Virus record (IMG/VR): IMGVR_UViG_3300042560_000266
Span: 1-24,477 of that record
Length of the DNA: 24,477 nt
From: a virus
Reading direction: 5' to 3' (one strand)
Position numbers and translations under genes: made by a program
Shown here: in pieces, positions 2,487 to 19,293 of the stretch
Position numbering within the stretch: the stretch's first letter is position 1
Layout of the letters: every line of letters starts with the position of its first letter
The notes under the pieces: generated by a model
The model's database searches: none
What the model was told of the DNA's origin: nothing
What the model saw: only the letters and a program-made list of their open reading frames with translations

Positions 2487-2976
2487 TACAATTAACGATG
2501 ACAAGTCAATTAAAGACTATTGCACTAATTTGTGCCATTTCGGTGACGACGTATATCAAGAGATGCAACTGGCATTGTGCGAACTTCCCGAAACTAAACT
2601 TGAACAAATTATTGAAGGTGGATGGTTAAAGTTTTGGGCAATCAGAGTTTGCACCAATATGTCAAGGCAGCATCAATTAAGCAGACAGTTAAGACACCAC
2701 AAAGAAAACGGTAACGTACGGATTGAAGATGATGCAAGAGGATGTTACGAGATTGAATTACAAATTGATGCAATCATCAAATTAGAGCAAATTGAAAGTT
2801 ACTTATTAAAGATACATTGGTATGAATCATCTTTGTTCAAGTTGTATTTAGAAAAAGGTTCATTCAGAGCAGTTCAAGATGATACTGGTATTAATTTTCA
2901 ATCGGTACGGTGGACTGTTAACAAAGTTTACGAAGGTTTAAACAAATTATTTGATGAAAATATTAATCGTACATAG
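2461..2976 (+). CDS. Sigma-70-like regulatory protein
   Basis: A 171-residue protein counted from ATG 2461; a TTG two codons earlier is an alternative start. The layout resembles short alternative sigma factors. Residues about 28-70 have a region-2-like pattern (DDVYQEMQLALCELPE followed by LKFWAIRVCTNMSRQ, compare the D-L-x-Q-E and R-x-x-x-N positions). After a charged linker, residues about 124-166 have a region-4-like helix-turn-helix (LFKLYLEKGSFRAVQDDTGI, then FQSVRWTVNKVYEGL). It could recruit host RNA polymerase to phage promoters; the terminase and virion genes downstream are the obvious targets. Similarity is from pattern recognition only, and it could instead be an HTH packaging or replication regulator. 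It overlaps both the preceding gene and the next one (ATG 2954). Confidence 0.55.
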   Translation: MRLIEVAINTINDDKSIKDYCTNLCHFGDDVYQEMQLALCELPETKLEQIIEGGWLKFWAIRVCTNMSRQHQLSRQLRHHKENGNVRIEDDARGCYEIELQIDAIIKLEQIESYLLKIHWYESSLFKLYLEKGSFRAVQDDTGINFQSVRWTVNKVYEGLNKLFDENINRT

Positions 2977-3997
2977 TGGGTTATCGGGTGTAGATTATCA
3001 TAGGTTGATAGTTCCATTCCAAGCAATGGGAAAGGAATACCCATACATTGAGTTCTTCCAAATTAATCACCTTGAAGAACACGAAGGCAAACCTGCACCA
3101 AGCGTTAAGGATATTATAGATTGGGGTATTGAGATTTGTATATTTTCAAGAAACATATCCTATAAGTTTGACCCTGCACCAATATTTGCGAAACTAAAGG
3201 CAGCAAAAGTTAAGATAGTAATGGACATTGATGACTATTGGTATTTGCCAAAGAATCACGTTATGTCAACAATCTACAAGAATGCAAATCTATCCAAGTG
3301 TATAGAAGACCAAATCAGAATGTGCGATGCCGTTATCTGTACCCATAGAGTATTAGCCAACGAGATAGCAAAATTCAGACTATCAAAAACAATCTACATT
3401 GCACCAAACGCAATCGACCCAACCCAACCGCAATTCAACTTAGAGGGATTGGAATACGACTATGAGCATTTGTATTGGCAAGGTTCACCAACACACTTAC
3501 ACGACCTTGAATTAATGGTAGGTGCATTTGATGGGTTAATAGATTACAAATTAACATTAGGTGGGTATATTGAAGAAGAACCAATATGGAAGAAGTATCT
3601 TGAACTATTCGCCAAGAATAACATTGACTTTGAACCTGCGGTATTTGTAGGACAATATGCACGAAACTACATGAATAAAGGTATCTGTTTAATTCCGTTG
3701 AAGGACAACAAATTCAACCGCATGAAATCAGAACTAAAGGCTATTGAAGCAGGGTGGTTTCAAAAGCCAGTCATTGCATCGTACACACACCCATACACAA
3801 GAATGATAACCAATGATGTTGATGGACTATTCATTCACAAACCACACGAATGGAAACCGAAGATAAAAGGTTTACTATCTAATCACCAATGGCAGGATGA
3901 TTTAAGAATGAAACTGCACGAAACCGTACACAAGCGTTACCTAATTGAACGAGCAAATCAACAACGATTAAACTTACTATATGACCTTAAGCGATAG
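2954..3997 (+). CDS. Glycosyltransferase, GT-B fold (GT4-like)
   Basis: 347 residues from ATG 2954 (a TTG one codon earlier is possible). The N-terminal Rossmann half starts with MKILIVHSGLSGVDYHR, followed by VKIVMDIDDYWYLP and CDAVICTHRVLANEI. The hinge is at IYIAPNAIDPTQP, as in GT4 enzymes where the loop before the second domain reads P-N-x-x-D. The C-terminal half has LTLGGY, FVGQYARNYMNKGICLIPLK, then NRMKSELKAIEAGWFQKPVI, which matches the K-x-x-E-x-x-A-x-x-x-P donor-site pattern, and ends with DVDGLFI. It should transfer a sugar from a nucleotide-sugar donor, but the acceptor (virion protein, DNA base or host surface glycan) cannot be read from the sequence. It forms a cassette with the GT9-like and methyltransferase genes downstream. 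Confidence 0.75.
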   Translation: MKILIVHSGLSGVDYHRLIVPFQAMGKEYPYIEFFQINHLEEHEGKPAPSVKDIIDWGIEICIFSRNISYKFDPAPIFAKLKAAKVKIVMDIDDYWYLPKNHVMSTIYKNANLSKCIEDQIRMCDAVICTHRVLANEIAKFRLSKTIYIAPNAIDPTQPQFNLEGLEYDYEHLYWQGSPTHLHDLELMVGAFDGLIDYKLTLGGYIEEEPIWKKYLELFAKNNIDFEPAVFVGQYARNYMNKGICLIPLKDNKFNRMKSELKAIEAGWFQKPVIASYTHPYTRMITNDVDGLFIHKPHEWKPKIKGLLSNHQWQDDLRMKLHETVHKRYLIERANQQRLNLLYDLKR

Positions 3998-4178
3998 AAT
4001 GACCGAAATCATCACGCAGTTCTTAAAATCAGGAGAATTGCGATGGACTTTAGATGAAGCTAAAGAGTTCAAAAAATTGTACCAAGAAACATTCCGCAGC
4101 AATGTTGATTTAAGTTGCGGATTATGTACGGGAAGTTGTATTAAAAAAGTAGCGAGATATGCAAACATTCAAGCATAG
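3981..4178 (+). CDS. Small cysteine-motif protein
   Basis: 65 residues if started at ATG 3981; ATG 3999, directly after the glycosyltransferase stop, would give 59. The first two thirds are helical (TEIITQFL, then TLDEAKEFKKLYQETF) and the end carries C46-x2-C49-x3-C53 with basic residues (IKKVARY). Three cysteines with this spacing could bind a metal together with another ligand, or pack as a dimer. The gene lies between two glycosyltransferase-type genes and overlaps both, so it was kept inside the cassette. The function is unknown. Confidence 0.6.
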   Translation: MTLSDRMTEIITQFLKSGELRWTLDEAKEFKKLYQETFRSNVDLSCGLCTGSCIKKVARYANIQA

Positions 4179-4905
4179 CGGTAACACGGGTGATATACTC
4201 TATTCACTCTATTCAATCACACAAGACTGCATCTATTACATTCACCTTGACCAACCTGCTGACTATGGTGGTAGGGTTCATCCATTAGGCAACGTAATGA
4301 TGAATAGAAAGATGTTTGACATGATAGTGCCGTTGCTTCTGCACAATCCGTATATCAAAGAAGTCAAAGAATATAAAGGCGAAGAGATTGATTATGACCT
4401 TGACAAATTTAGAACCGCACCGATTGATTTGGGAAGGGGAGATATTAAACATTGGTACTATCTATTATATCCCGAACTTACACCGCACATACCATTGAAC
4501 CCATTACGAGGAATAAATGCTTTTAACTTTGGTTCACCTTACATAGCAGTTAATCGCACATTCCGTTATCGCAATCCTGATTTACGCTACAAGTGTCTAA
4601 ACGATTACGACATACCAATTCTCTTCATGGGATTACAAGATGAATTTGATGACTTTAAATTAAGAGTACCTAAAGCTATTCACACACCAGTCACAGACTT
4701 TTTACAAGCAGCAGAAATCATTAGGGGTGCATCGTTATTCATCGGCAACCAATCCATGATGTTTGCAATTAGCGAACTTTTACAAGTGCCAAGAATCTTA
4801 GAGGTGTATAAACACGCACCGAATGTTATACCTTCTGGCGGTCAATTCTATGAAGTCATTAACGAAACAAATCTTAAGAAGGCAATAGACCTGATAAACA
4901 TTTAA
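4159..4905 (+). CDS. GT9/heptosyltransferase-like glycosyltransferase
   Basis: 248 residues, with GT-B features related to family 9. The N-terminus FKHSGNTGDILYSLYSI matches the G-x-x-G-D-x-x-x-x-x-P entry loop of ADP-heptose:LPS transferases (the final Pro is absent). The C-terminal donor half includes YIAVNRTFRYRN, IPILFMGLQDEF, then FLQAAEIIRGASLFIGNQSM followed by MFAISELLQVPRI, which fits the S-x-x-x-G-x-x-S/T-G-x-x-H region with Gln-Ser in place of the usual residues. At 248 residues it is shorter than bacterial heptosyltransferases (about 320-350), and the N-terminal domain appears trimmed. It overlaps the Cys-motif gene by 20 nt. It probably acts in sequence with the GT4-like enzyme, but substrate and acceptor are unknown. 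Confidence 0.65.
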   Translation: MQTFKHSGNTGDILYSLYSITQDCIYYIHLDQPADYGGRVHPLGNVMMNRKMFDMIVPLLLHNPYIKEVKEYKGEEIDYDLDKFRTAPIDLGRGDIKHWYYLLYPELTPHIPLNPLRGINAFNFGSPYIAVNRTFRYRNPDLRYKCLNDYDIPILFMGLQDEFDDFKLRVPKAIHTPVTDFLQAAEIIRGASLFIGNQSMMFAISELLQVPRILEVYKHAPNVIPSGGQFYEVINETNLKKAIDLINI

Positions 4906-4914
4906 CCAATCAAC

Positions 4915-4922
4915 TATATTTT
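4915..4922 (+). promoter_or_regulatory. AT-rich promoter-like box (TATATTTT)
   Basis: TATATTTT lies in the 23-nt gap before the methyltransferase and ends 6 nt before its ATG. The same octamer, also preceded by AATCAA, stands 7 nt before the ATG at 8305. It is a candidate -7 element for the methyltransferase-TerS-TerL run. Confidence 0.4.
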
Positions 4923-4928
4923 AAACAC

Positions 4929-5492
4929 ATGGCAGAAACAAGTAAATCAAGACCAAGAAGAGAACAAGAAGGCTTCTTTGTTAAATACGTTCAAGAACCT
5001 ATCATTGATATTGGAGTAGGAAGAATAGATACTTATGATGGTGCTGACCCATTAACACCAGATTGTGACACATGGGATAAAGATGATGGCAATGCTGAAT
5101 TAATGAAATCAGTAAAGGACAACACATACATGACCGTTTACAATAGTCATTTGATTGAACACCTTAATGACCCAATCACGGCAATTCAGAATTGGTATAG
5201 GATTTGTAAACCAAATGGACACATCATCATTGCTGCACCTGACAGAGATAGTTATGAAAGAAAGAAAACGCTACCAAGTCAATGGAATGCAGACCATAAG
5301 TATTTCCTGACCTTAAACAATAACGAACCACCCTGCACATTCTCGTTATTAGGAATGATTGCGTATGCACTTGACAAGCATGAATACAGAATCAAATATG
5401 CTCAAACAATTAACACCTGCACCAACATGGACAAAATAAATGAGCATGGAAATGGTGAATATCAAATTGAAGTTGTAATACAGAAGTTATGA
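4929..5492 (+). CDS. SAM-dependent class I methyltransferase
   Basis: 187 residues. Motif I is present as PIIDIGVGRI (about residues 24-33), motif II-like acidic residues follow in DTYDGADPLTPD, and the Methyltransf_11-type signature appears as SHLIEHLNDPITAIQNWYRI (from residue 73) with KPNGHIIIAAPDR after it. This family commonly methylates sugars or small molecules, and less often DNA; no DNA-methylase catalytic motif (DPPY or PC) is present. Its start lies 23 nt after the GT9-like gene, behind a promoter-like box. The stop overlaps the ATG of TerS by 4 nt, so it is expressed with the packaging genes. It could methylate the sugar placed by the neighbouring transferases. The family is secure; the substrate is unknown. 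Confidence 0.75.
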   Translation: MAETSKSRPRREQEGFFVKYVQEPIIDIGVGRIDTYDGADPLTPDCDTWDKDDGNAELMKSVKDNTYMTVYNSHLIEHLNDPITAIQNWYRICKPNGHIIIAAPDRDSYERKKTLPSQWNADHKYFLTLNNNEPPCTFSLLGMIAYALDKHEYRIKYAQTINTCTNMDKINEHGNGEYQIEVVIQKL

Positions 5493-5899: not shown

Positions 5900-7045
5900 A
5901 TGTTTAAATACACCACCGCAATACGAAAGCTAAGAAAGTTAACGAAACGGGTTAAGATTATTCGTGGTGGAACAAGTGCAGGTAAGACATTCGGAATCAT
6001 TCCGATTTTAATTGATTACGCAGCACGACACCCTAACACAGAAATAAGTATTGTATCAGAATCAATACCACATCTTAGAAGGGGTGCGATTAAAGACTTC
6101 TTAAAAATCATGCAATGGACTGGCAGGTTTAATCCTGACCATTGGAACAAGTCACTATTAACCTACTACTTCACAAATCGGTCATATATTGAGTTCTTTA
6201 GTGCCGACCAAGAGCAGAAACTAAGAGGTGCAAGAAGGAATATACTATACATCAACGAATGTAATAACGTTAACTTTGAATCCTATCATCAGTTAGCTAT
6301 TAGAACAAACGGTGATATTTGGTTGGATTATAACCCAGTTAGTGCGTTTTGGGTAGATGCGGAATTGATAGGTGATGAGGATAGCGAATTGGTTGTGTTG
6401 ACCTATAAAGATAATGAAGCACTTGACCAATCTATTGTCAAAGAAATAGAAAAGGCAAGAGAGAAGGCAGACACTTCCGACTATTGGGCTAATTGGTGGA
6501 AAGTATACGGATTAGGAGAAGTCGGACAAGTGCAAGGTACAATCTTCACTAACTGGCAGCAAATTGACAACTTGCCAAGTGATGCGACATTAAAGGGCAT
6601 CGGTATTGACTTTGGGTATAGCAACGACCCTACTGCTATTATAGCTACTTATTACCACAACGGGGTGTACATCTTCCATGAAGTAGAATACAAAACAGAG
6701 ATGCTCAATAGTGATGTGGCACAATCTGTTAAACCATTAAACACCCATTGCATTTGTGATAGTTCTGAACCGAAGAGTATAGCCGAATTAAAACGATTGG
6801 GGGTTAGAGCAATGCCATGCGACAAAGGTAAGGATAGTGTGAATTTCGGTATTCAGTCAATACAACAGATGGATAAATTCTACATCACATCAAGTAGCAC
6901 CAACTTAATCAAAGAGGTCAGGGGTTATGTATGGATGGAAGGCAAGACAAAACCGATTGAACACAACAACCACTCTATTGATGCAATGAGATACATATAC
7001 ACTCACTTAACAAATAAACGTTCAGGACATTATGACATACGATGA
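5900..7045 (+). CDS. terL: Terminase large subunit (PBSX-like)
   Basis: 381 residues, complete. The ATPase domain has Walker A GGTSAGKT at 23-30, a Walker B-like strand ILYINE at 115-120 with catalytic Glu120, and the coupling segment LVVLTYKDN near 164-172. The RNase H-like nuclease domain shows its acidic residues at Asp237 (GIGIDFGYSNDPTAI), Asp287 (CDSSEPKSIAELK) and Asp361 (HNNHSIDAMRY). All expected catalytic positions are intact, so it should be active in cutting and pumping DNA into the prohead. Walker A sits only about 20 residues from the start, which is short but usual for this family. The 3' end overlaps the next gene by 14 nt. Confidence 0.92.
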   Translation: MFKYTTAIRKLRKLTKRVKIIRGGTSAGKTFGIIPILIDYAARHPNTEISIVSESIPHLRRGAIKDFLKIMQWTGRFNPDHWNKSLLTYYFTNRSYIEFFSADQEQKLRGARRNILYINECNNVNFESYHQLAIRTNGDIWLDYNPVSAFWVDAELIGDEDSELVVLTYKDNEALDQSIVKEIEKAREKADTSDYWANWWKVYGLGEVGQVQGTIFTNWQQIDNLPSDATLKGIGIDFGYSNDPTAIIATYYHNGVYIFHEVEYKTEMLNSDVAQSVKPLNTHCICDSSEPKSIAELKRLGVRAMPCDKGKDSVNFGIQSIQQMDKFYITSSSTNLIKEVRGYVWMEGKTKPIEHNNHSIDAMRYIYTHLTNKRSGHYDIR

Positions 7046-7625
7046 TATTACATTAGGGCAATGGCTACAAATGGAAGAAGCAGCCAAAGATTATGACAAT
7101 GACTACTACCAAGCAGCAGCGAAGATTAGCGTTTTAAGCGGTCACGATGTAGATGATTTGATTAGTATGCCATTGAATAAGTACGGCAAGATTCAAAGCA
7201 AGTATGACTTCTTGATGTACGCACCACGCACAATCATGGCTACTACATTTGAAGGCAAACCATTTAATTTAGATTTTAAGACTTTGCCGTATGGTGACTT
7301 TGTTGACTTAATGGAAATCATCAAGACAACACCAGAACGAATAGATTTAATCATTGCTAAGTTATGGCAGAGTGGCATGACATTGGAAGCATCAGCAAAA
7401 GTAATACGAGAGAAGATGACTGTACCACTTGCGATGGGGTTGTCTGCTTTTTTTTTCGACTATTGGGAACGCTTACAACCACTCATCCTGCAATCTTTAA
7501 ACAAGAAGATACGCAAGATGGAGAAGGAAATGAAGATACATTCATCAAATCGTTTGGTTGGATTCTTTGGATTGATAAAATTGCGAATAACGAACCGCTT
7601 AAGTGGCATGAAGTGGAAGCGATGA
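7032..7625 (+). CDS. Tail assembly chaperone-like protein, zero-frame product
   Basis: 197 residues if no frameshift occurs. The N-terminal part (ITLGQWLQMEEAAKDYD, AAAKISVLSG, LPYGDFVDLMEII) is the compact helical type found upstream of tape measure genes in Bacteroidota phages. After LAMGLSAFFF the gene runs through nine T bases (7448-7456). The zero-frame tail becomes basic (LNKKIRKMEKEMK, then ITNRLSGMKWKR), while the -1 frame holds a well-formed protein segment that overlaps the next gene. This is the G/GT arrangement of lambda-like tail chaperones, where two products in a set ratio keep the tape measure soluble. The gene is 4.8 kb ahead of the tape measure rather than directly before it. 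Chaperone identity is an inference; the overlap of frames is seen. Confidence 0.6.
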   Translation: MTYDDITLGQWLQMEEAAKDYDNDYYQAAAKISVLSGHDVDDLISMPLNKYGKIQSKYDFLMYAPRTIMATTFEGKPFNLDFKTLPYGDFVDLMEIIKTTPERIDLIIAKLWQSGMTLEASAKVIREKMTVPLAMGLSAFFFDYWERLQPLILQSLNKKIRKMEKEMKIHSSNRLVGFFGLIKLRITNRLSGMKWKR

Positions 7626-7714
7626 CAACCTACCGAGCATTGAACGTTATGACGTACATAATAGCACGAGATGAGTACGATAAAAGACAAAGTAAAATAA
7701 AACGCTATGAGTGA
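7364..7714 (+). CDS. -1 frame extension of the tail assembly chaperone
   Basis: The frame is open from an ATG at 7364, but the residues before about 7457 read like a shadow of the zero frame. The convincing protein begins after the T-run: NEDTFIKSFGWILWIDKIAN, then EPLKWHEVEAMTTYRALNVM and IIARDEYDKRQ. I therefore read it as the second half of a fusion made by -1 slippage at 7448-7456, giving about 227 residues in total (141 zero-frame plus 86). Its stop overlaps the next ATG (ATGAGTGA at 7707-7714), the same tight coupling seen between true genes here. Alternatives are an independent gene starting at 7364 or a sequencing error in the homopolymer that would make one continuous gene. Confidence 0.6.
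   Translation: MAEWHDIGSISKSNTREDDCTTCDGVVCFFFRLLGTLTTTHPAIFKQEDTQDGEGNEDTFIKSFGWILWIDKIANNEPLKWHEVEAMTTYRALNVMTYIIARDEYDKRQSKIKRYE
7448..7456 (+). promoter_or_regulatory. T9 slippery sequence, probable -1 ribosomal frameshift site
   Basis: Nine T bases follow GC, so in the zero frame the heptamer reads T-TTT-TTT, an X-XXY-YYZ slippery site with Phe tRNA in both positions. Slipping one base back joins the frame begun at 7032 to the one ending at 7714. I did not identify a downstream stem-loop or pseudoknot with certainty. Confidence 0.55.
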
Positions 7715-8270
7715 TTTAACGGGTATTCAAAATTTCATTCAGTCATCTATTGACAACATTGCCAACAATATGGCATCAATGGTTGACAGTAAAGGTCGCA
7801 ATCGTTACGCATCAGGTAACACCGCCCAATCTGTTGGAAGTAGTCAACCAGTCTATGAGGTTGTGCAGAATGAAAGAGAAATAACCATACGCATCTATAT
7901 GCCATACTACTATGATTTCATAGATAAGGGTGTCAATGGTTTGCAGAATAGTAGGAATAGTCCGTATTCATTTCGTAAGGTATCACCACCACCACTTGCA
8001 GCAATGCGTCAATTTATGATTAATAGGGGAATAGTTCCGAGAGATTCAAGCGGTAAAAGAACACGACCTAAGAACTACGACAAGGCATTGAATGGTTTAG
8101 CTTATGCGATAGGTCGTAAGATTAAACTGAATGGAATTGAGGGTGTGCCATTTTATTCAAATGTCATCAATGCAAAATGGGAACAAGAACTGATTGCATT
8201 AATGGGTGACACATTTGGTGAAGACATCGTTAAAAAATGGGACATAGTATTTACCAATCAGCCGAAGTAA
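7707..8270 (+). CDS. HK97 gp10-like head-tail/tail completion protein
   Basis: 187 residues. The N-terminus (IQNFIQSSIDNIANNMASMV) is a helix like that of HK97 gp10-type proteins. The middle has VVQNEREITIRIYMPYYYDF followed by IDKGVNG, the typical strand and Y/F-x-D/E-x-G loop of the family, then PPPLAAMRQFMINRGI. The end has AIGRKIKLNGIEGVPFYSNV, where the last residues before the C-terminal helix carry the usual G-x-x-x-x-F/Y motif. Such proteins act at the neck or tail end during joining. It starts inside the stop of the frameshift product. The family resemblance is good but by eye only, so the exact joining role stays open. Confidence 0.5.
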   Translation: MSDLTGIQNFIQSSIDNIANNMASMVDSKGRNRYASGNTAQSVGSSQPVYEVVQNEREITIRIYMPYYYDFIDKGVNGLQNSRNSPYSFRKVSPPPLAAMRQFMINRGIVPRDSSGKRTRPKNYDKALNGLAYAIGRKIKLNGIEGVPFYSNVINAKWEQELIALMGDTFGEDIVKKWDIVFTNQPK

Positions 8271-9573: not shown

Positions 9574-12443
9574 GTTTATACATCAACAATCAACTCATTC
9601 AATTTTCAGAAGATGTCGCACCCAAGCTAACCAAAAAGAGTTACGACATTGACAATCCATCCCAACTTTGGTCTGACTATTCAAAAACTATTGAAGTAGC
9701 AGGAACATCAGAGGTCAATATTTTATTTGGGTATTTGTTCAATGTCAACATCGACATTCAGAACACATCACAAACTAACTTCAACCCTGACTTTAATCCA
9801 AACTTAAAAGCATCAGCAAGGATTGATTATTATAGCAGAACGCTGATAGATGGCTATGCGCAATTGACTGGAATCAAGATAGATGACTTCAATCAAATCA
9901 GTTACACACTTACAATTTACGGAAGTGTATTAAATCTGTTTAATGTAGTTGCAAATAAAAAGTTAGCTGAATTAGATTTCAGCGAATACAACCACACTTG
10001 GAATCAGACCAATATAGTCAATTCATGGACACCTACTTTAGGAAGTGGCTATGTATACCCAATGATTGATTATGGCGAATCACCGACATACGACCTATGG
10101 AATGCATCACAATTCTACCCTGCCATTTTCGCTAAAGAATATTGGGATAAGATATTTAACGCATCGGGTTTCAGTTACACATCATCATTTCTTACATCTG
10201 ATTTATTTAAACGGCTTATCATTCCATTTTCGGGAACTAAACCTAAACTAAGCGAATCAGAGATAGCCGACAGAATATTCTATTTGTCACGTGCTACAAC
10301 GACAATGACTGGCAGTTTACCAACAAATCAAAACAATGTCAGTAGCTATCCTAAATTGATTTATAACGATGACAGTAGTGGTAATAACTTCAACACAATA
10401 GGCACAGATTACAACACTACTACGGGAGTGTGGAATGTGGCAAATGAAGGGCGGTATATTTTTAGAGGTTCAATGACTGTTGAGTTAGACAAAACAGTAT
10501 CAGCAGTCTTAATTAATGACACACCCAGTAACACGAATACACGCTTTAAGGTTGCAGTTGTTAAGTATGATGGCACATACACCGTTCTTGAAACTATTAT
10601 GACCGAGTGGGATGGGTATTCCGTTGGTGTAGTTACAGTCGGAACAAATAGCGCACCGCATTCCTTTCAATTTGAAACAAACGAACACTACCTTAAATCA
10701 ACGGATGAGGTGTTCTTGGCGGTCATGGGTGCAGAAACTTATTACATTTGGAATAAGTGGAATACAAATAATCGGTTTGATTATATCATTTCTGTTGGTG
10801 CTATATTTACTATCAATGTTGACCCTAATACAATAATTGGTGACACATGGCTAATGAATAAATCATTGCCTATTGACATTAGTCAGCGTGATTTTATCAT
10901 GGGCATATTTAAGATGTTCAATTTGTTTATTGACATTGACCCTGACAATCCGACAAATCTAATCATAGAACCGTATGAAGACTTCTTCACGGGTTCAGAA
11001 GATTTAACACCTTATTTAGATACTTCAAAGCCATTTGAAATAACACCAATGGGAATGCTCAAGGGCAAACGTTATGAGATGAAGTATAAGTCAGATAAGG
11101 ACTACTTGAATGAACGTTATGAACAAGCATACGGTGAGGTTTACGGACAGAAGAACGCTGATATACTGAATGATTTTTTGATTGATACTTACACTATTCA
11201 GCCTATATTCAGCGCAACACCATCATCAGGCAATAGCGGAAACGATAGAGTAATACCTGATATGTCATTTATTGACCAAAATGGAGTGGTTAAAACGGGT
11301 CAATCAAACATAAGAATCTTATATTGGGGTGGGTTAAAAAATACGGCAAAGACATGGTATATTTATCAAACACTACCCACTACAACATCTAAGACCCAAT
11401 ATCCATACGCAGGTCACTTAAACGACCCATACGCACCTACTATTGATTTATCCTATGGAGTGCCACAAGTGTTATACTATAAGGCATCATTCGGTGAACT
11501 ATTTGAACAGTCGTATACAGATAACAACCTTTACAACGCATATTGGTCAAAGTACATAAAAGAGATAACAGACCGCAATAGTAAGTTAGTGACTTGTTAC
11601 ATGGATTTGAAAGCAGTATACACCACGCTATCATTTCGCAAGTCATATTACATTAAAGATGCCTACTATCGTTTATTGGAAGTGTCTGACTATAATGTCA
11701 ACGGCAGCGAAACGGCTAAGTGTATCTTTTTAAAAGTGCAAGAATCACCATCATTTGCACCAACACCACAAACATGGAGAGGTGGCGAGAAACTATTTCC
11801 TGATGATAGCCCATACCCGACATTTGATAATACATTAGGTCGTGGTGGAAGTCAAGTCAATAAGTATGGTGGTAGCACATTTGGAAACGGTAATACAACT
11901 GGTGGCGGTGTTAGTGTTGGTGATAATATTCGAGGTGCTTTAGTTTTTACAAATGTAAATAATTTTGGGGGCAACGGTAACATTGCAGGTGCTGACAAAG
12001 TGACATTCATTGGTTCATCAAATTACTACGAGTATCGTGAAGGTGCAACTATCATCAACGACATATTTGCGTGGACTAAATTAGAATTGACTTTGACTGG
12101 CACAGAAGCAGCATCATTGAATACATCACCAATAGAGATACTACCACCATGTGCATCGAATGAATATTATCAGATTGACAAGGCATTGTATGAATTAGAT
12201 TATAACGAGGGGTGGACTACAACATCAGTAACATTAAACGTACAGACCGCAACAAGTAACAACAGTTTGAATGCAATTACTAATCTATTCAGTCAAGTTG
12301 CAGATGCGTATTTAAAGGGTACGGTAGGAACGGAAGTACTTGACATGGGTGAAGCTATCGAATTGAGTACATCAGTTAATGCAGGTGCAGGAACGACCAA
12401 CACCGTTAAAGTGGTTGTATATTATAGAATTAACAGAATATAA
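9567..12443 (+). CDS. Large tail hub/baseplate protein
   Basis: 958 residues, the largest protein in the window. It begins with GLYINNQLIQFSEDVAP and YSKTIEVAGTSEVNILFGYL, then TNFNPDFNPNLKASARIDYY, a pattern I know from baseplate-type proteins of Bacteroidota phages. The middle (about residues 420-560) has FIMGIFKMFNLFIDIDPDNP, ITPMGMLKGKRYEMKYKSD and NERYEQAYGEVYG, similar in style to gp27/Tal hub domains. At about residues 765-795 a Gly/Asn-rich linker (GRGGSQ, GGSTFGNGNTTGGGVSVGD) separates a C-terminal beta domain ending VVVYYRINRI, which could be a carbohydrate- or receptor-contacting module. No peptidoglycan hydrolase motif is seen. The hub assignment is based on size, order and pattern. 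Confidence 0.55.
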   Translation: MVGLYINNQLIQFSEDVAPKLTKKSYDIDNPSQLWSDYSKTIEVAGTSEVNILFGYLFNVNIDIQNTSQTNFNPDFNPNLKASARIDYYSRTLIDGYAQLTGIKIDDFNQISYTLTIYGSVLNLFNVVANKKLAELDFSEYNHTWNQTNIVNSWTPTLGSGYVYPMIDYGESPTYDLWNASQFYPAIFAKEYWDKIFNASGFSYTSSFLTSDLFKRLIIPFSGTKPKLSESEIADRIFYLSRATTTMTGSLPTNQNNVSSYPKLIYNDDSSGNNFNTIGTDYNTTTGVWNVANEGRYIFRGSMTVELDKTVSAVLINDTPSNTNTRFKVAVVKYDGTYTVLETIMTEWDGYSVGVVTVGTNSAPHSFQFETNEHYLKSTDEVFLAVMGAETYYIWNKWNTNNRFDYIISVGAIFTINVDPNTIIGDTWLMNKSLPIDISQRDFIMGIFKMFNLFIDIDPDNPTNLIIEPYEDFFTGSEDLTPYLDTSKPFEITPMGMLKGKRYEMKYKSDKDYLNERYEQAYGEVYGQKNADILNDFLIDTYTIQPIFSATPSSGNSGNDRVIPDMSFIDQNGVVKTGQSNIRILYWGGLKNTAKTWYIYQTLPTTTSKTQYPYAGHLNDPYAPTIDLSYGVPQVLYYKASFGELFEQSYTDNNLYNAYWSKYIKEITDRNSKLVTCYMDLKAVYTTLSFRKSYYIKDAYYRLLEVSDYNVNGSETAKCIFLKVQESPSFAPTPQTWRGGEKLFPDDSPYPTFDNTLGRGGSQVNKYGGSTFGNGNTTGGGVSVGDNIRGALVFTNVNNFGGNGNIAGADKVTFIGSSNYYEYREGATIINDIFAWTKLELTLTGTEAASLNTSPIEILPPCASNEYYQIDKALYELDYNEGWTTTSVTLNVQTATSNNSLNAITNLFSQVADAYLKGTVGTEVLDMGEAIELSTSVNAGAGTTNTVKVVVYYRINRI

Positions 12444-12446
12444 GTC

Positions 12447-14246
12447 ATGGCAGATAAAGTAGTAAGTCTTAAGGTCGTTGTAGATACGGCAACGGGTACG
12501 GCAAATGTAGAGAACCTAAATGAAGAGTTAAGAGGTACGGTAGAAGCAACCGAGCAGACTGGTAAGCAATCCAAAAAGGTTACAACCGATATGTCAAATG
12601 GCTTTAAAATGGTAGGCGATGCAATAGGTAGAGCAAATCCAATGTTAGGTCAGTTAATTAGTGGAATAAACATGGCTACCAAAGCATCATTTTCATTCAT
12701 ATCTACACCATTAGGTATTGTATTAGCAGCCATAGCAGCAGCAGGTTTGTTAGTATATCAAGCATTCAAAACATTTCAGCCATTACTTGACAAAATAGAA
12801 CAAGGTTTTGCTGCAATAAGTGGAGTTATAGGAGTTGTTCGTAATGCTTTTGTTGCAATGGTAACTGGCAGTAAATCGGTTGGGGAAGCGTTTCGTGGTT
12901 TAGGTGGCGATATGTCGGAAGCAGCTAAAAGAGCAAGTGAATTAAAGAAGGCGCAACAAGAGTTAAATAATGAAATGAAAATACAAGAAGTGTCAACCGC
13001 AAAATCAAGGGCTTTAATCAATTCATTGAATGTAGCTGCTAAAGATAGAACAAAAAGTGAAAAAGAAAGAATTGAACTATTAAGACAAGCATCAATCTTA
13101 GAAGAGTTAGATTATAATGAAAGAAAGAAAATAGCAGATAAGGAATTAAAACAAGCTAAAGAAGCCATAATTATAAAGGCAGGATTAAAAGGAAAAGAGT
13201 TAGAAGATTTTGAAGAATTGGGGGTTGCATACCAACAGTATAGCGAAAAAAAAGGTGGTGCGCAAGATGAGTTATATTTAAATCTAAAAAATGCTATATT
13301 AAAAGGAATTGAACTTGAGGATGAAGCTACCACAAATCTTGAAAAGAACGTAATCAAACGCAACCAATTACTTGATGATGAGAAGGCAAAGCGTGACAAA
13401 GTTAATGCAGACCTATTGGCAGCAGCAAAAGAAAAAGAAGAAAAAGAAAAGGAGTGGTTTGAAACTATTAAGCAAATAAATGAAGATTTGCAACAAGAAT
13501 TTAAAAAAGGTGCTGAAGAGTCTGAAAAACATATGGATGAAATATTTGCACGACAAAAACAATTAACTGAACAGAGATTAAAATTACAAAAAGAAGCAGA
13601 TGAAATAATTATTGAATTAGGAGAGATAGAAGAAACTGGCGAATTTGAAGCGCAGAAACGCAGAGAAAATGAATTGGCTTATGACTTAAAAGTTAGACAA
13701 GACCATGCCGATAAATTAGTAGAGATAGCACGAAAGAAGCAAGAAAATCTACAATTTTATGAGGATTTGACCATGCAAGGATTAGGTATAATCAGTAGCA
13801 TGAATGAGGTGTTTGCTAATAAATCAGAAGAAAACGCTAAAAAGGCATTTGAAAATAATAAGAAAATACAAATTGCGGAAGCGTTAGTGTCAACATATTT
13901 TGCAGCACAAAAAGCATACGCATCACAAATTATACCATTAGACCCTACATCAATAGTTCGTGCGCAAATAGCAGCAGGTGTAGCGATTGTAAGTGGTTTA
14001 TCAAGAGTTGCTAAAATTAAATCAATGAAATATGATAGTGCATCATCATCTATGGATAGTAGTGGTGGTGTATCAGGTTTGAGTGGCGGAACACAATCAC
14101 AATCAACGGGACTTACAGTACTTACACCACAATCTGTGCGAAGCAGAAAAGATGCAGAACCAGTTAAGGTGTATGTCACCGAAACAGACATCAGAGCAGC
14201 ATCAGGTAGAGTAAGTGACATTCAATCTAAGGCAGTTGTAAAATAA
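12447..14246 (+). CDS. Tail tape measure protein
   Basis: 599 residues. It has the standard layout: a short N-terminal beta/helix part, a hydrophobic region at about 76-130 (FISTPLGIVLAAIAAAGLLV and ISGVIGVVRNAFVAMVTG), a long highly charged coiled-coil at about 165-460 (SELKKAQQELNNEM, KEKEEKEKEWFETIKQI, QLTEQRLKLQKEADEIIIEL), a second Ala-rich hydrophobic part (IQIAEALVSTYFAAQKAYAS), and a Ser/Gly-rich tail (SSSMDSSGGVSGLSGG). The length predicts a tail of roughly 90 nm by the usual 1.5 angstrom per residue rule, so a long tail rather than a podovirus. No lysozyme or peptidase domain is visible. It follows the tail hub by 3 nt, the reverse of the lambda order. Confidence 0.8.
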   Translation: MADKVVSLKVVVDTATGTANVENLNEELRGTVEATEQTGKQSKKVTTDMSNGFKMVGDAIGRANPMLGQLISGINMATKASFSFISTPLGIVLAAIAAAGLLVYQAFKTFQPLLDKIEQGFAAISGVIGVVRNAFVAMVTGSKSVGEAFRGLGGDMSEAAKRASELKKAQQELNNEMKIQEVSTAKSRALINSLNVAAKDRTKSEKERIELLRQASILEELDYNERKKIADKELKQAKEAIIIKAGLKGKELEDFEELGVAYQQYSEKKGGAQDELYLNLKNAILKGIELEDEATTNLEKNVIKRNQLLDDEKAKRDKVNADLLAAAKEKEEKEKEWFETIKQINEDLQQEFKKGAEESEKHMDEIFARQKQLTEQRLKLQKEADEIIIELGEIEETGEFEAQKRRENELAYDLKVRQDHADKLVEIARKKQENLQFYEDLTMQGLGIISSMNEVFANKSEENAKKAFENNKKIQIAEALVSTYFAAQKAYASQIIPLDPTSIVRAQIAAGVAIVSGLSRVAKIKSMKYDSASSSMDSSGGVSGLSGGTQSQSTGLTVLTPQSVRSRKDAEPVKVYVTETDIRAASGRVSDIQSKAVVK

Positions 14247-16997: not shown

Positions 16998-17372
16998 ATG
17001 ATAGTCATAGAAAAGGGCGTAGTAAACACATTTGCATTGACATTAACCGAAAAGGTCACAATAGCTGCACCGTATTACCTTATGACAGTAACGGGCAAGT
17101 CAGGTCAAGCTATCGTTAAATGGTTGATGACAGACATTTCGGCATACCCTGAAAGATTTAATAAATTTCAATTTGAAGAGGGTGTGACTGCTACTATTCC
17201 ATTCAAAGGTGATTACATATATAAGGTTTATCAGAAGGCAGCAGCAAACACAATCATTCCAACAGACCCTAATGATTTAATAGAGCAAGGAATAATGCGT
17301 GTAGAGGGTGATGATGCAACGTATGTAGAGCATTCTAACACAACAACAACAGTAATTTATGAAGCAGATTAG
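16998..17372 (+). CDS. Small virion-associated protein (beta-rich)
   Basis: 124 residues of a type that occurs among structural genes of Bacteroidota phages. It is made of alternating strands: MIVIEKGVVNTFALTLTEKV, YYLMTVTGKSGQAIVKWLMT, then FNKFQFEEG, GDYIYKVYQKAAA and GIMRVEGDDATYVEH, followed by a Thr-rich end. The R/Y-F-N-x-F segment and the G-D-Y-x-Y-x-V-Y turn suggest a small immunoglobulin-like sandwich. It is not enzymatic. It overlaps the portal gene by 14 nt. It may be a head decoration, neck or tail protein; the sequence does not decide. Confidence 0.55.
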   Translation: MIVIEKGVVNTFALTLTEKVTIAAPYYLMTVTGKSGQAIVKWLMTDISAYPERFNKFQFEEGVTATIPFKGDYIYKVYQKAAANTIIPTDPNDLIEQGIMRVEGDDATYVEHSNTTTTVIYEAD

Positions 17373-19293
17373 CAACGGATTATACAGTTTAGACTTCACG
17401 GCATACAATGCACCTAACTTCATTGAAAACAAAAGGGGCAAATATGTTGAGTATGGTGAAGATAACGCATTCCCATTTTACTTGGTTGACCTATTTAATG
17501 GTAGCAGCGTTCATAACGCTATTGTAACGGGCAAGGTAAACTATATTGTTGGTCGTGGACTGACAGTACCAAACGACATGAACACGCTTAAAAGAGCAAT
17601 GGTTGAAGCATTTGTCTTTTCACCAAATCCATACGAAACATGGAATGACATCTTTAAAAAGATAGCAGCAGATTATGAGATTTACAATGGATTTGCAATA
17701 GAGGTTTTAAACGATAAAAACGGCAAGATAAGCGAAGTATATCACATGGACTTTGGTCGGTTGAGAGTACCAATAGATGACCGTAACAACGTGATGTATT
17801 CTGATGAGTGGTTGAATCTTCAATGGGGAATGGATGACTTTACTTACAACCGTAATTTCAGACCCAAAACAACTTTACTTCCTTTATTCAATCCTAACAA
17901 AACACAAAGCAGGTCGGTAATTTATCACCGTGAATACCGACCAAACATGAAAGAATATCCATTACCTGACTACATCGGTGCTTTACAACAAATCAGAACG
18001 CAAATAGAGATAAGTAATTTTGATTTGAACACGATTGTAAACGGTTTTGCAGGTGGTACGATGATAAATCTTTACAACGGAATGCCACCCGAAGAAGAGC
18101 AAAAGAACGCTATTGAACAACAGATATATGACAAGGCAGCAGGAAGTTCAAATGGTAATAGAATCCTAATCAACTTTGCTGATTCAAAAGATACATCAGG
18201 TGCGGAGATATTGAACTTAATGGGCAACGACTTGCCCGATAGATTTGCACAACTTGAAAAGCGTGTGACAGATTCAATCTTCATTGGTCATAAGGTAACA
18301 TCACCAATGTTATTCGGTGTAAAAACAGAAGGTCAATTAGGTGGCAGAACAGAGATGTTAAATGCTTACGAACTATTCAAAGAAACCTACATACAAGGAA
18401 GACAGAGAATCTTATTAAATGTAGTCAATGATGTGTTTGATTACAAAGGTTTAGGCAGACCAATATCAGTTGAAGAATTAAGACCTATTACAACTGAATT
18501 GCCAGTTATAGACCCAGTCACAATGATAAGTCTATTTGACCGTGAGAAATTGAAGGAAAGAGTATCAGAAGTGTATGGAATTTCGCCAAGTGATGAGCAA
18601 AACACAACCGAAGAAACTCAATTAAGTATAAAGTTTGAAGAGCAATTTGATGATGCCATTTTAAACTACTTCAAAAACAAAGGTGTCAAGGCAGATGATT
18701 ACGAGATAGTTGGTGACTTTCAAGTTAATGCAGATAACGAAAGTGTGAAGTTTGAAATCAATGAAAATGACTTTGAATTTGCTGACCCAACCGAAAAGCA
18801 ATTAGCGGAGATAGCTAAGATTGTTCGTGCTAACAAAGGCATAACCATAGCCGAAGTAGCAAAGGTGATGAAAGTCGATGTGGCAACGATAGAAAGTGCC
18901 GTACAAGCGTTGATTAATAAGAAGATGATAGTTAGGGCAGATAACGGTAATATGAATGTCACACAGTCTGCATTGCCTTTAATCATGAAGCTACCTAACC
19001 CTGATGAAGTACTATTAGTTAAATATCAATACGGTATTAGAAATGACATGAGTGGTCAACCTTTGGTAATTCAAAAGACAAGGCAATTCTGCCGTGAGTT
19101 GGTTGCATCAAATAAGCTATACACCAAAGAAGAAATAGAAGGCATGAGAAATGACATGGAAGTTAGTTTCTTGCCATATATAACAAATGTATGGATGGCA
19201 CGAGGTGGATGGTATAGAAGAAAAGGAACGGATGTAAGTGTGCCATTTTGCCGACATATTTGGCGTCAAGTAGTAGTTAAATCAAAGCGTTAA
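17359..19293 (+). CDS. Portal protein with C-terminal extension
   Basis: 644 residues. The first 450 or so are a portal of the SPP1/HK97-like superfamily: FPFYLVDLFNGSSVHNAIVT, KVNYIVGRGL, NPYETWNDIFKKIAADYEIY, LPDYIGALQQIRTQIEISNF, then GGTMINLYNG, HKVTSPMLFGVKTEGQLGGR with TEMLNAYELFKETYIQGRQR, which is the stem and crown pattern. Beyond this lies an extension: an acidic stretch, a winged-helix-like segment at about 482-540 (ANKGITIAEVAKVMKVDVAT, IESAVQALINKKMIVRADNG), and an end GGWYRRKGTDVSVPFCRHIW at 616-635, similar to the C-terminal cysteine/histidine part seen in phage morphogenesis proteins. The portal lies after the capsid gene, not between terminase and protease. The core assignment is firm; the role of the extension is unknown. 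Confidence 0.75.
   Translation: MKQISNGLYSLDFTAYNAPNFIENKRGKYVEYGEDNAFPFYLVDLFNGSSVHNAIVTGKVNYIVGRGLTVPNDMNTLKRAMVEAFVFSPNPYETWNDIFKKIAADYEIYNGFAIEVLNDKNGKISEVYHMDFGRLRVPIDDRNNVMYSDEWLNLQWGMDDFTYNRNFRPKTTLLPLFNPNKTQSRSVIYHREYRPNMKEYPLPDYIGALQQIRTQIEISNFDLNTIVNGFAGGTMINLYNGMPPEEEQKNAIEQQIYDKAAGSSNGNRILINFADSKDTSGAEILNLMGNDLPDRFAQLEKRVTDSIFIGHKVTSPMLFGVKTEGQLGGRTEMLNAYELFKETYIQGRQRILLNVVNDVFDYKGLGRPISVEELRPITTELPVIDPVTMISLFDREKLKERVSEVYGISPSDEQNTTEETQLSIKFEEQFDDAILNYFKNKGVKADDYEIVGDFQVNADNESVKFEINENDFEFADPTEKQLAEIAKIVRANKGITIAEVAKVMKVDVATIESAVQALINKKMIVRADNGNMNVTQSALPLIMKLPNPDEVLLVKYQYGIRNDMSGQPLVIQKTRQFCRELVASNKLYTKEEIEGMRNDMEVSFLPYITNVWMARGGWYRRKGTDVSVPFCRHIWRQVVVKSKR

What the first reader, a model, noticed from the sequence alone, without database searches (positions are those of the whole stretch)
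7448..7456. Probable programmed -1 frameshift in a tail chaperone gene at a T9 run
The zero frame (7032-7625) and the -1 frame ending at 7714 overlap. The -1 frame contains a convincing protein segment (FIKSFGWILWIDKIAN and onward) but has no good independent start, and its stop overlaps the next gene start as in true gene pairs. T-TTT-TTT is a classic slippery heptamer. This is the lambda G/GT arrangement, here almost 5 kb away from the tape measure and directly behind terL, with both tails still open and so possibly dual-coding.
Basis: partly seen in the sequence, partly recalled or inferred. Interest (0 to 1): 0.65.

Follow-up and report, generated by a model that had tools for sequence, protein, structure and literature searches.

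The report
Nine-T slip site in phage gene
A run of exactly nine T bases, kept across very different viruses of Bacteroidota bacteria, lets one phage gene make two versions of a probable tail-building helper protein, and because the run keeps its length while drifting between codon positions, the slipping is more likely done by RNA polymerase than by the ribosome.

Summary
In detail: T9 at window 7448-7456 joins a 0-frame ORF (A, 7032-7625) to an overlapping -1 ORF (B, ending 7714). It is neither error nor chance. Relatives found through terL (IMG/VR, prophages, cultured Nonlabens phage P12024S) carry the same A/-1 B gene behind terL. In 54 protein clusters the junction run is T9 in 51 (T10 twice, T8 once). 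The codon register changed at least 11 times on the terL tree while length stayed 9. Codon-position divergence switches from A's to B's pattern right after the run, so T9, not the in-frame TTTAAAC at 7496, is the junction. Natural in-frame A-B fusions exist. The 0 frame stays open after the run far longer than B's protein would predict (window: 56 codons; recoded median 3; 0 of 500). No downstream RNA structure is enriched. I favour programmed transcriptional slippage (about 0.65-0.7) over -1 ribosomal slippage, which is not excluded: T9 holds one in-phase U_UUU_UUU in any register, and a Mucilaginibacter clade has an in-phase T7, probably ribosomal. Tail chaperone identity is probable, not proven: weak PHROG hits, no PDB fold match. 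In the library searched I found no report of slippage serving a tail chaperone. New variant of a known kind.

The parts
5900..7045 (+). terminase large subunit (terL), immediately upstream, overlaps A by 14 nt
   Evidence: PHROG terL 6e-34; Pfam Terminase_3 and Terminase_3C
7032..7625 (+). A: 0-frame ORF, short product (197 aa), probable tail assembly chaperone N-domain plus 56-codon 0-frame tail
   Evidence: ORF; conserved gene behind terL in relatives; AlphaFold2 pLDDT 82.7; weak PHROG tail protein match in relatives
7448..7456 (+). T9 slip site, codon register 3 (GCT TTT TTT TTC)
   Evidence: T9 in 51 of 54 clusters, registers 1, 2 and 3; at least 11 register changes on the terL tree
7457..7714 (+). 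B: -1-frame extension (about 85 codons) joined to A after slippage; open frame runs 7361-7714
   Evidence: B profile hits; codon-position divergence switches to B's frame at the run; AlphaFold2 model all helical
7457..7625 (+). dual-coding overlap: 0-frame tail of A and start of B
   Evidence: 0 frame open 56 codons; recoded median 3; 0 of 500 recodings as long
7496..7502 (+). in-frame TTTAAAC heptamer, a decoy: kept only in the three nearest relatives
   Evidence: junction signal begins at the T run
7707..8270 (+). next gene, overlaps B's stop by 8 nt
   Evidence: PHROG 29822, unknown function
12447..14246 (+). probable tail tape measure protein, 4.7 kb downstream
   Evidence: PHROG 3336 tape measure, E 2e-4

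Best explanation
The gene behind terL makes two proteins in a set ratio. Most transcripts carry nine U and give the short product A. At the T9 run RNA polymerase slips on a fraction of transcripts and adds one U (or drops two), which puts the -1 frame in line and gives the long product A-B. By analogy with lambda G/GT, A would coat the tape measure and B would bring in tail tube subunits. Shown by sequence: the junction at T9, the conserved A/B architecture, length 9 kept across registers, constraint on both frames. Inferred: that the slipping agent is RNA polymerase, the ratio, and the tail chaperone function.
For: T9 in 51 of 54 clusters; registers 1, 2 and 3 with at least 11 changes on the terL tree; close pair L167/L187 where the run moved one base with one T gained at one end and one lost at the other, still T9; T9 elsewhere 1 in 379 kb of the same representatives; exact T9 in 51 against 7.4 expected under 0-frame synonymous recoding; no enrichment of RNA structure after the run, mean z -0.17 and -0.07; codon-position signal switches to B within 21 nt; in-frame fusions in L052, L053, L059 and Elizabethkingia phage TCUEAP1 gp3, and viral proteins that match both the A and the B model; cultured phage P12024S has the T9. 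Nine A or T is the length at which selection against slippage shows in many bacterial genomes (PMC1088944); runs of 9 give transcripts with extra bases (PMC5009743).
Against: Every T9 contains one in-phase U_UUU_UUU, so ribosomal slippage is always possible. If amino acids are held fixed and the heptamer is kept, synonymous recoding gives exactly T9 in 74% of draws, so length alone discriminates weakly and the register changes carry the argument. 22 Mucilaginibacter loci have T7, all in register 3. No transcript data. The tail chaperone assignment has no strong homology.
Confidence: 0.65

Rival explanations
1. -1 programmed ribosomal frameshifting on the in-phase heptamer U_UUU_UUU inside the run, as in lambda G/GT.
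For: In-phase heptamer present in every T9; Mucilaginibacter T7 sites, 22 of 22 in register 3, fit it; typical mechanism of tail chaperones (PMC5009743).
Against: Seven T would do in register 3, yet outside the Mucilaginibacter clade register-3 sites are T9; no other heptamer type found at the junction; no downstream structure enrichment; registers drift while length stays 9.
Confidence: 0.28
2. Slippage at the in-frame TTTAAAC at 7496 instead of T9.
For: Classic heptamer in the right register; 0-frame residues between T9 and it look protein-like.
Against: Absent from other relatives at this place; B-frame divergence pattern starts within 21 nt of the run; the B segment straight after the run aligns across relatives.
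Confidence: 0.02
3. Sequencing error, pseudogene, or phase variation of a hypermutable tract.
For: Homopolymers are error-prone in general.
Against: T9 in independent assemblies, isolates and a cultured phage; phase variation would give mixed lengths, seen T9 in 51 of 54; both frames constrained.
Confidence: 0.02
4. B is a separate gene with its own start, coupled to A.
For: In some loci a TTG lies in the B frame near the run.
Against: No ATG in 46 of 54 clusters and no ATG/GTG/TTG in 20 of 54; in-frame fusions exist.
Confidence: 0.03

Closest known systems
Lambda G/GT tail assembly chaperone frameshift and its relatives
   Same: Short product and -1-frame extended product from one gene in a tailed phage; in-phase slippery heptamer contained in the run.
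   Different: Run of nine T kept in any codon register, directly behind terL and 4.7 kb from the tape measure, long dual-coding 0-frame tail, no downstream structure; no significant homology to a named chaperone.
Shigella mxiE and related type III secretion genes (transcriptional slippage on T/A runs)
   Same: T run at an ORF junction where an extra U restores the longer product (PMC1088944; PMC4256274).
   Different: Those are bacterial genes; here a phage gene family with register drift across many lineages.
dnaX of Thermus (RNA polymerase, A9) and of E. coli (ribosome)
   Same: Homologous genes may use either slippage type; the T9 and Mucilaginibacter T7 sites could be a parallel (title of Larsen 2000 as listed).
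   Different: Parallel is my inference; no experiment on either site.

Membership tests
Phage tail assembly chaperone (G/GT type) | two products from one start through a -1 frame change near the end of the first ORF | tested here: met
   A and -1 B architecture with conserved junction; products not detected experimentally
Phage tail assembly chaperone (G/GT type) | position directly upstream of the tape measure gene | tested here: not met
   behind terL, tape measure at 12447
Phage tail assembly chaperone (G/GT type) | sequence or fold relationship to a known tail chaperone | tested here: inconclusive
   PHROG 166 tail protein 1.6e-4 in relatives, 4.3e-4; Foldseek named chaperone prob 0.54; no PDB match; no Pfam
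Phage tail assembly chaperone (G/GT type) | both products bind tape measure or tail tube protein and are absent from virions | not testable with these tools
   needs biochemistry
Programmed transcriptional slippage site | A/T run of about nine or more at an ORF junction | tested here: met
   T9 in 51 of 54 clusters
Programmed transcriptional slippage site | independence of codon register | tested here: met
   registers 1, 2, 3; at least 11 changes
Programmed transcriptional slippage site | transcripts of mixed run length | not testable with these tools
   no RNA data
-1 programmed ribosomal frameshift site | in-phase X_XXY_YYZ heptamer | tested here: met
   in-phase TTTTTTT at 7448
-1 programmed ribosomal frameshift site | downstream stimulatory structure | tested here: not met
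   no enrichment over shuffles across 54 representatives; many chaperone sites lack one, so weak

The most novel reading that the evidence does not exclude
A widespread family of Bacteroidota phage genes, probably tail chaperones, sets the ratio of its two products by RNA polymerase slippage on a T9 run held at nine while its codon register drifts, and one Mucilaginibacter clade has switched to ribosomal slippage on T7.
Probability: 0.55. Interest if true: 0.75.

Novelty: new variant of a known kind. Interest (0 to 1): 0.62.

Why it matters
Tail chaperone frameshifting is usually taken to be ribosomal. A conserved T9 that ignores codon register would place the control of a phage assembly ratio in the host RNA polymerase, tie it to host transcription, and mean that frameshift finders that look for in-phase heptamers explain it wrongly. 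P12024S is a cultured lytic phage that carries the site, so the question can be tested directly.

Tried and rejected
TTTAAAC at 7496 as slip site (not conserved, signal starts at T9). Downstream RNA structure (none enriched). Sequencing error and phase variation. Separate start for B. PDB sequence and fold searches gave nothing. Conserved G-D-G motif of A's tail is only the shadow of B's WGW motif read one frame over, so it is no independent evidence that A's tail works. Close terL relatives in Flavobacterium psychrophilum phages (Fpv6) do not carry this gene behind terL. Survey bias: the first scan required runs of 8 T or more; the profile survey was built from those hits but did recover T7 and in-frame forms.

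Full report
What is there. The window is an IMG/VR virus record. Behind terL (5900-7045) lies ORF A (7032-7625) and, one frame back, an ORF open from 7361 to 7714, whose stop overlaps the next gene. Nine T lie at 7448-7456 as GCT TTT TTT TTC.

Relatives. Three IMG/VR contigs, 95-100% identical, keep T9. Searching with terL brought in divergent loci from IMG/VR and from bacterial genomes. A scan for homopolymer runs with an A/-1 B layout, refined by script, gave 97 loci in 54 clusters at 70% identity: T9 in 51 clusters, T10 in two, T8 in one; register 2 in 36, register 3 in 17, register 1 in one. Because that scan required at least eight T, I made profiles of the A part and of B and searched all forward-strand ORFs. 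Of 150 loci with a B hit, 126 have B in -1 to A: the 97, four more T9 sites cut off by contig ends, 22 Mucilaginibacter loci with T7, and three doubtful ones without a run (L083, L111, L120). The other 24 have B within one longer ORF; in three of them (L052, L053, L059) the A profile also matches in the same frame, and TCUEAP1 gp3 is such an ORF in a cultured phage. No other kind of slippery heptamer was seen at the junction. The profiles were built from T-run loci, so a bias towards them remains.

A cultured example. Nonlabens phage P12024S has A (P12024S_38) and the B domain (profile E 3e-9) in -1, with T9 at L226:8443-8451; both are annotated as hypothetical.

Where the frame changes. In close pairs the fastest codon position before the run is A's third; in the first 21 nt after it the fastest is A's second, which is B's third (0.188 against 0.103 and 0.058; whole overlap). 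So B is read from the run on, and the TTTAAAC at 7496, present only in the nearest relatives, is not the junction. Between 21 and 90 nt after the run the positions are near equal, as dual coding would give. Recoding B with synonymous codons closes the 0 frame early: in the window the median is 3 codons against 56 observed, 0 of 500 as long; over 54 clusters the median P is 0.017 and 65% are at or below 0.05. The clusters are related, so these are not independent tests. The +1 frame closes after a median of 2 codons.

Which machine slips. Three points favour RNA polymerase. First, length is kept while register is not: parsimony on a terL tree needs at least 11 register changes among T9 sites (quick tree with some long branches), and in L167/L187 the run moved by one base and stayed nine long. 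Second, no downstream structure is enriched. Third, nine is the length at which selection against slippage-prone runs shows in many bacteria (PMC1088944); in these loci T9 is otherwise rare. Against it: any T9 has one in-phase heptamer. With amino acids fixed, recoding gives T9 in 7.4 of 54 clusters against 51 observed, but if the heptamer must be kept, 74% of recodings are T9 already. So length by itself discriminates weakly, and the register drift is the main argument. The Mucilaginibacter T7 sites, all in register 3, fit ribosomal slippage; in L138 a -1 stop just before the run leaves T7 as the only candidate there. They come from one genus and are not independent.

What the protein is. A folds with good confidence (pLDDT 82.7), B moderately (73.8), both mainly helical. 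A matches uncharacterised phage proteins, P12024S among them, and weakly one named tail assembly chaperone (prob 0.54). Some proteins match both A and B models, for example A0A6J7WJY4, which supports the fusion. Relatives hit PHROG 166, tail protein, at 1.6e-4 to 4e-4. No PDB or Pfam support. Tail chaperone is therefore the likely but unproven reading, and the place next to terL is unusual for it.

Literature. Searches of the held library for transcriptional slippage with tail chaperones, phages, prophages and Bacteroidetes found reviews, prediction tools and unrelated cases, no report of this. Subscription papers, such as the 2004 survey of tail frameshifts, could not be read.

Noticed in passing
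L227 (Flavobacterium phage 6H, KC959568) 10048-10927, minus strand: A structural relative of A (AGN89393) ends at an in-frame TTTTTTC and is followed by a 300-nt unannotated gap with a protein-like -1 frame, but a stop lies soon after the T6 in that frame; recoding type unresolved.
   Followed up: partly
L104-L145, Mucilaginibacter genomes: The same terL plus A/B gene occurs in many Mucilaginibacter species, T7 in 22 loci, T9 in several, T8 in one; looks like a conserved prophage or gene-transfer-agent-like element.
   Followed up: partly
L161, L165, L155 and relatives: 0-frame tail and -1 tail are of nearly equal length (about 90 codons each), so two alternative C-terminal ends are encoded over about 270 nt.
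   Followed up: partly
window 17359-19293: Portal protein carries a C-terminal stretch with weak winged-helix matches.
   Followed up: no
window 2951-5492: Three ORFs upstream of terL that read like glycosyltransferase- and methyltransferase-type proteins; seen by eye only, not searched.
   Followed up: no
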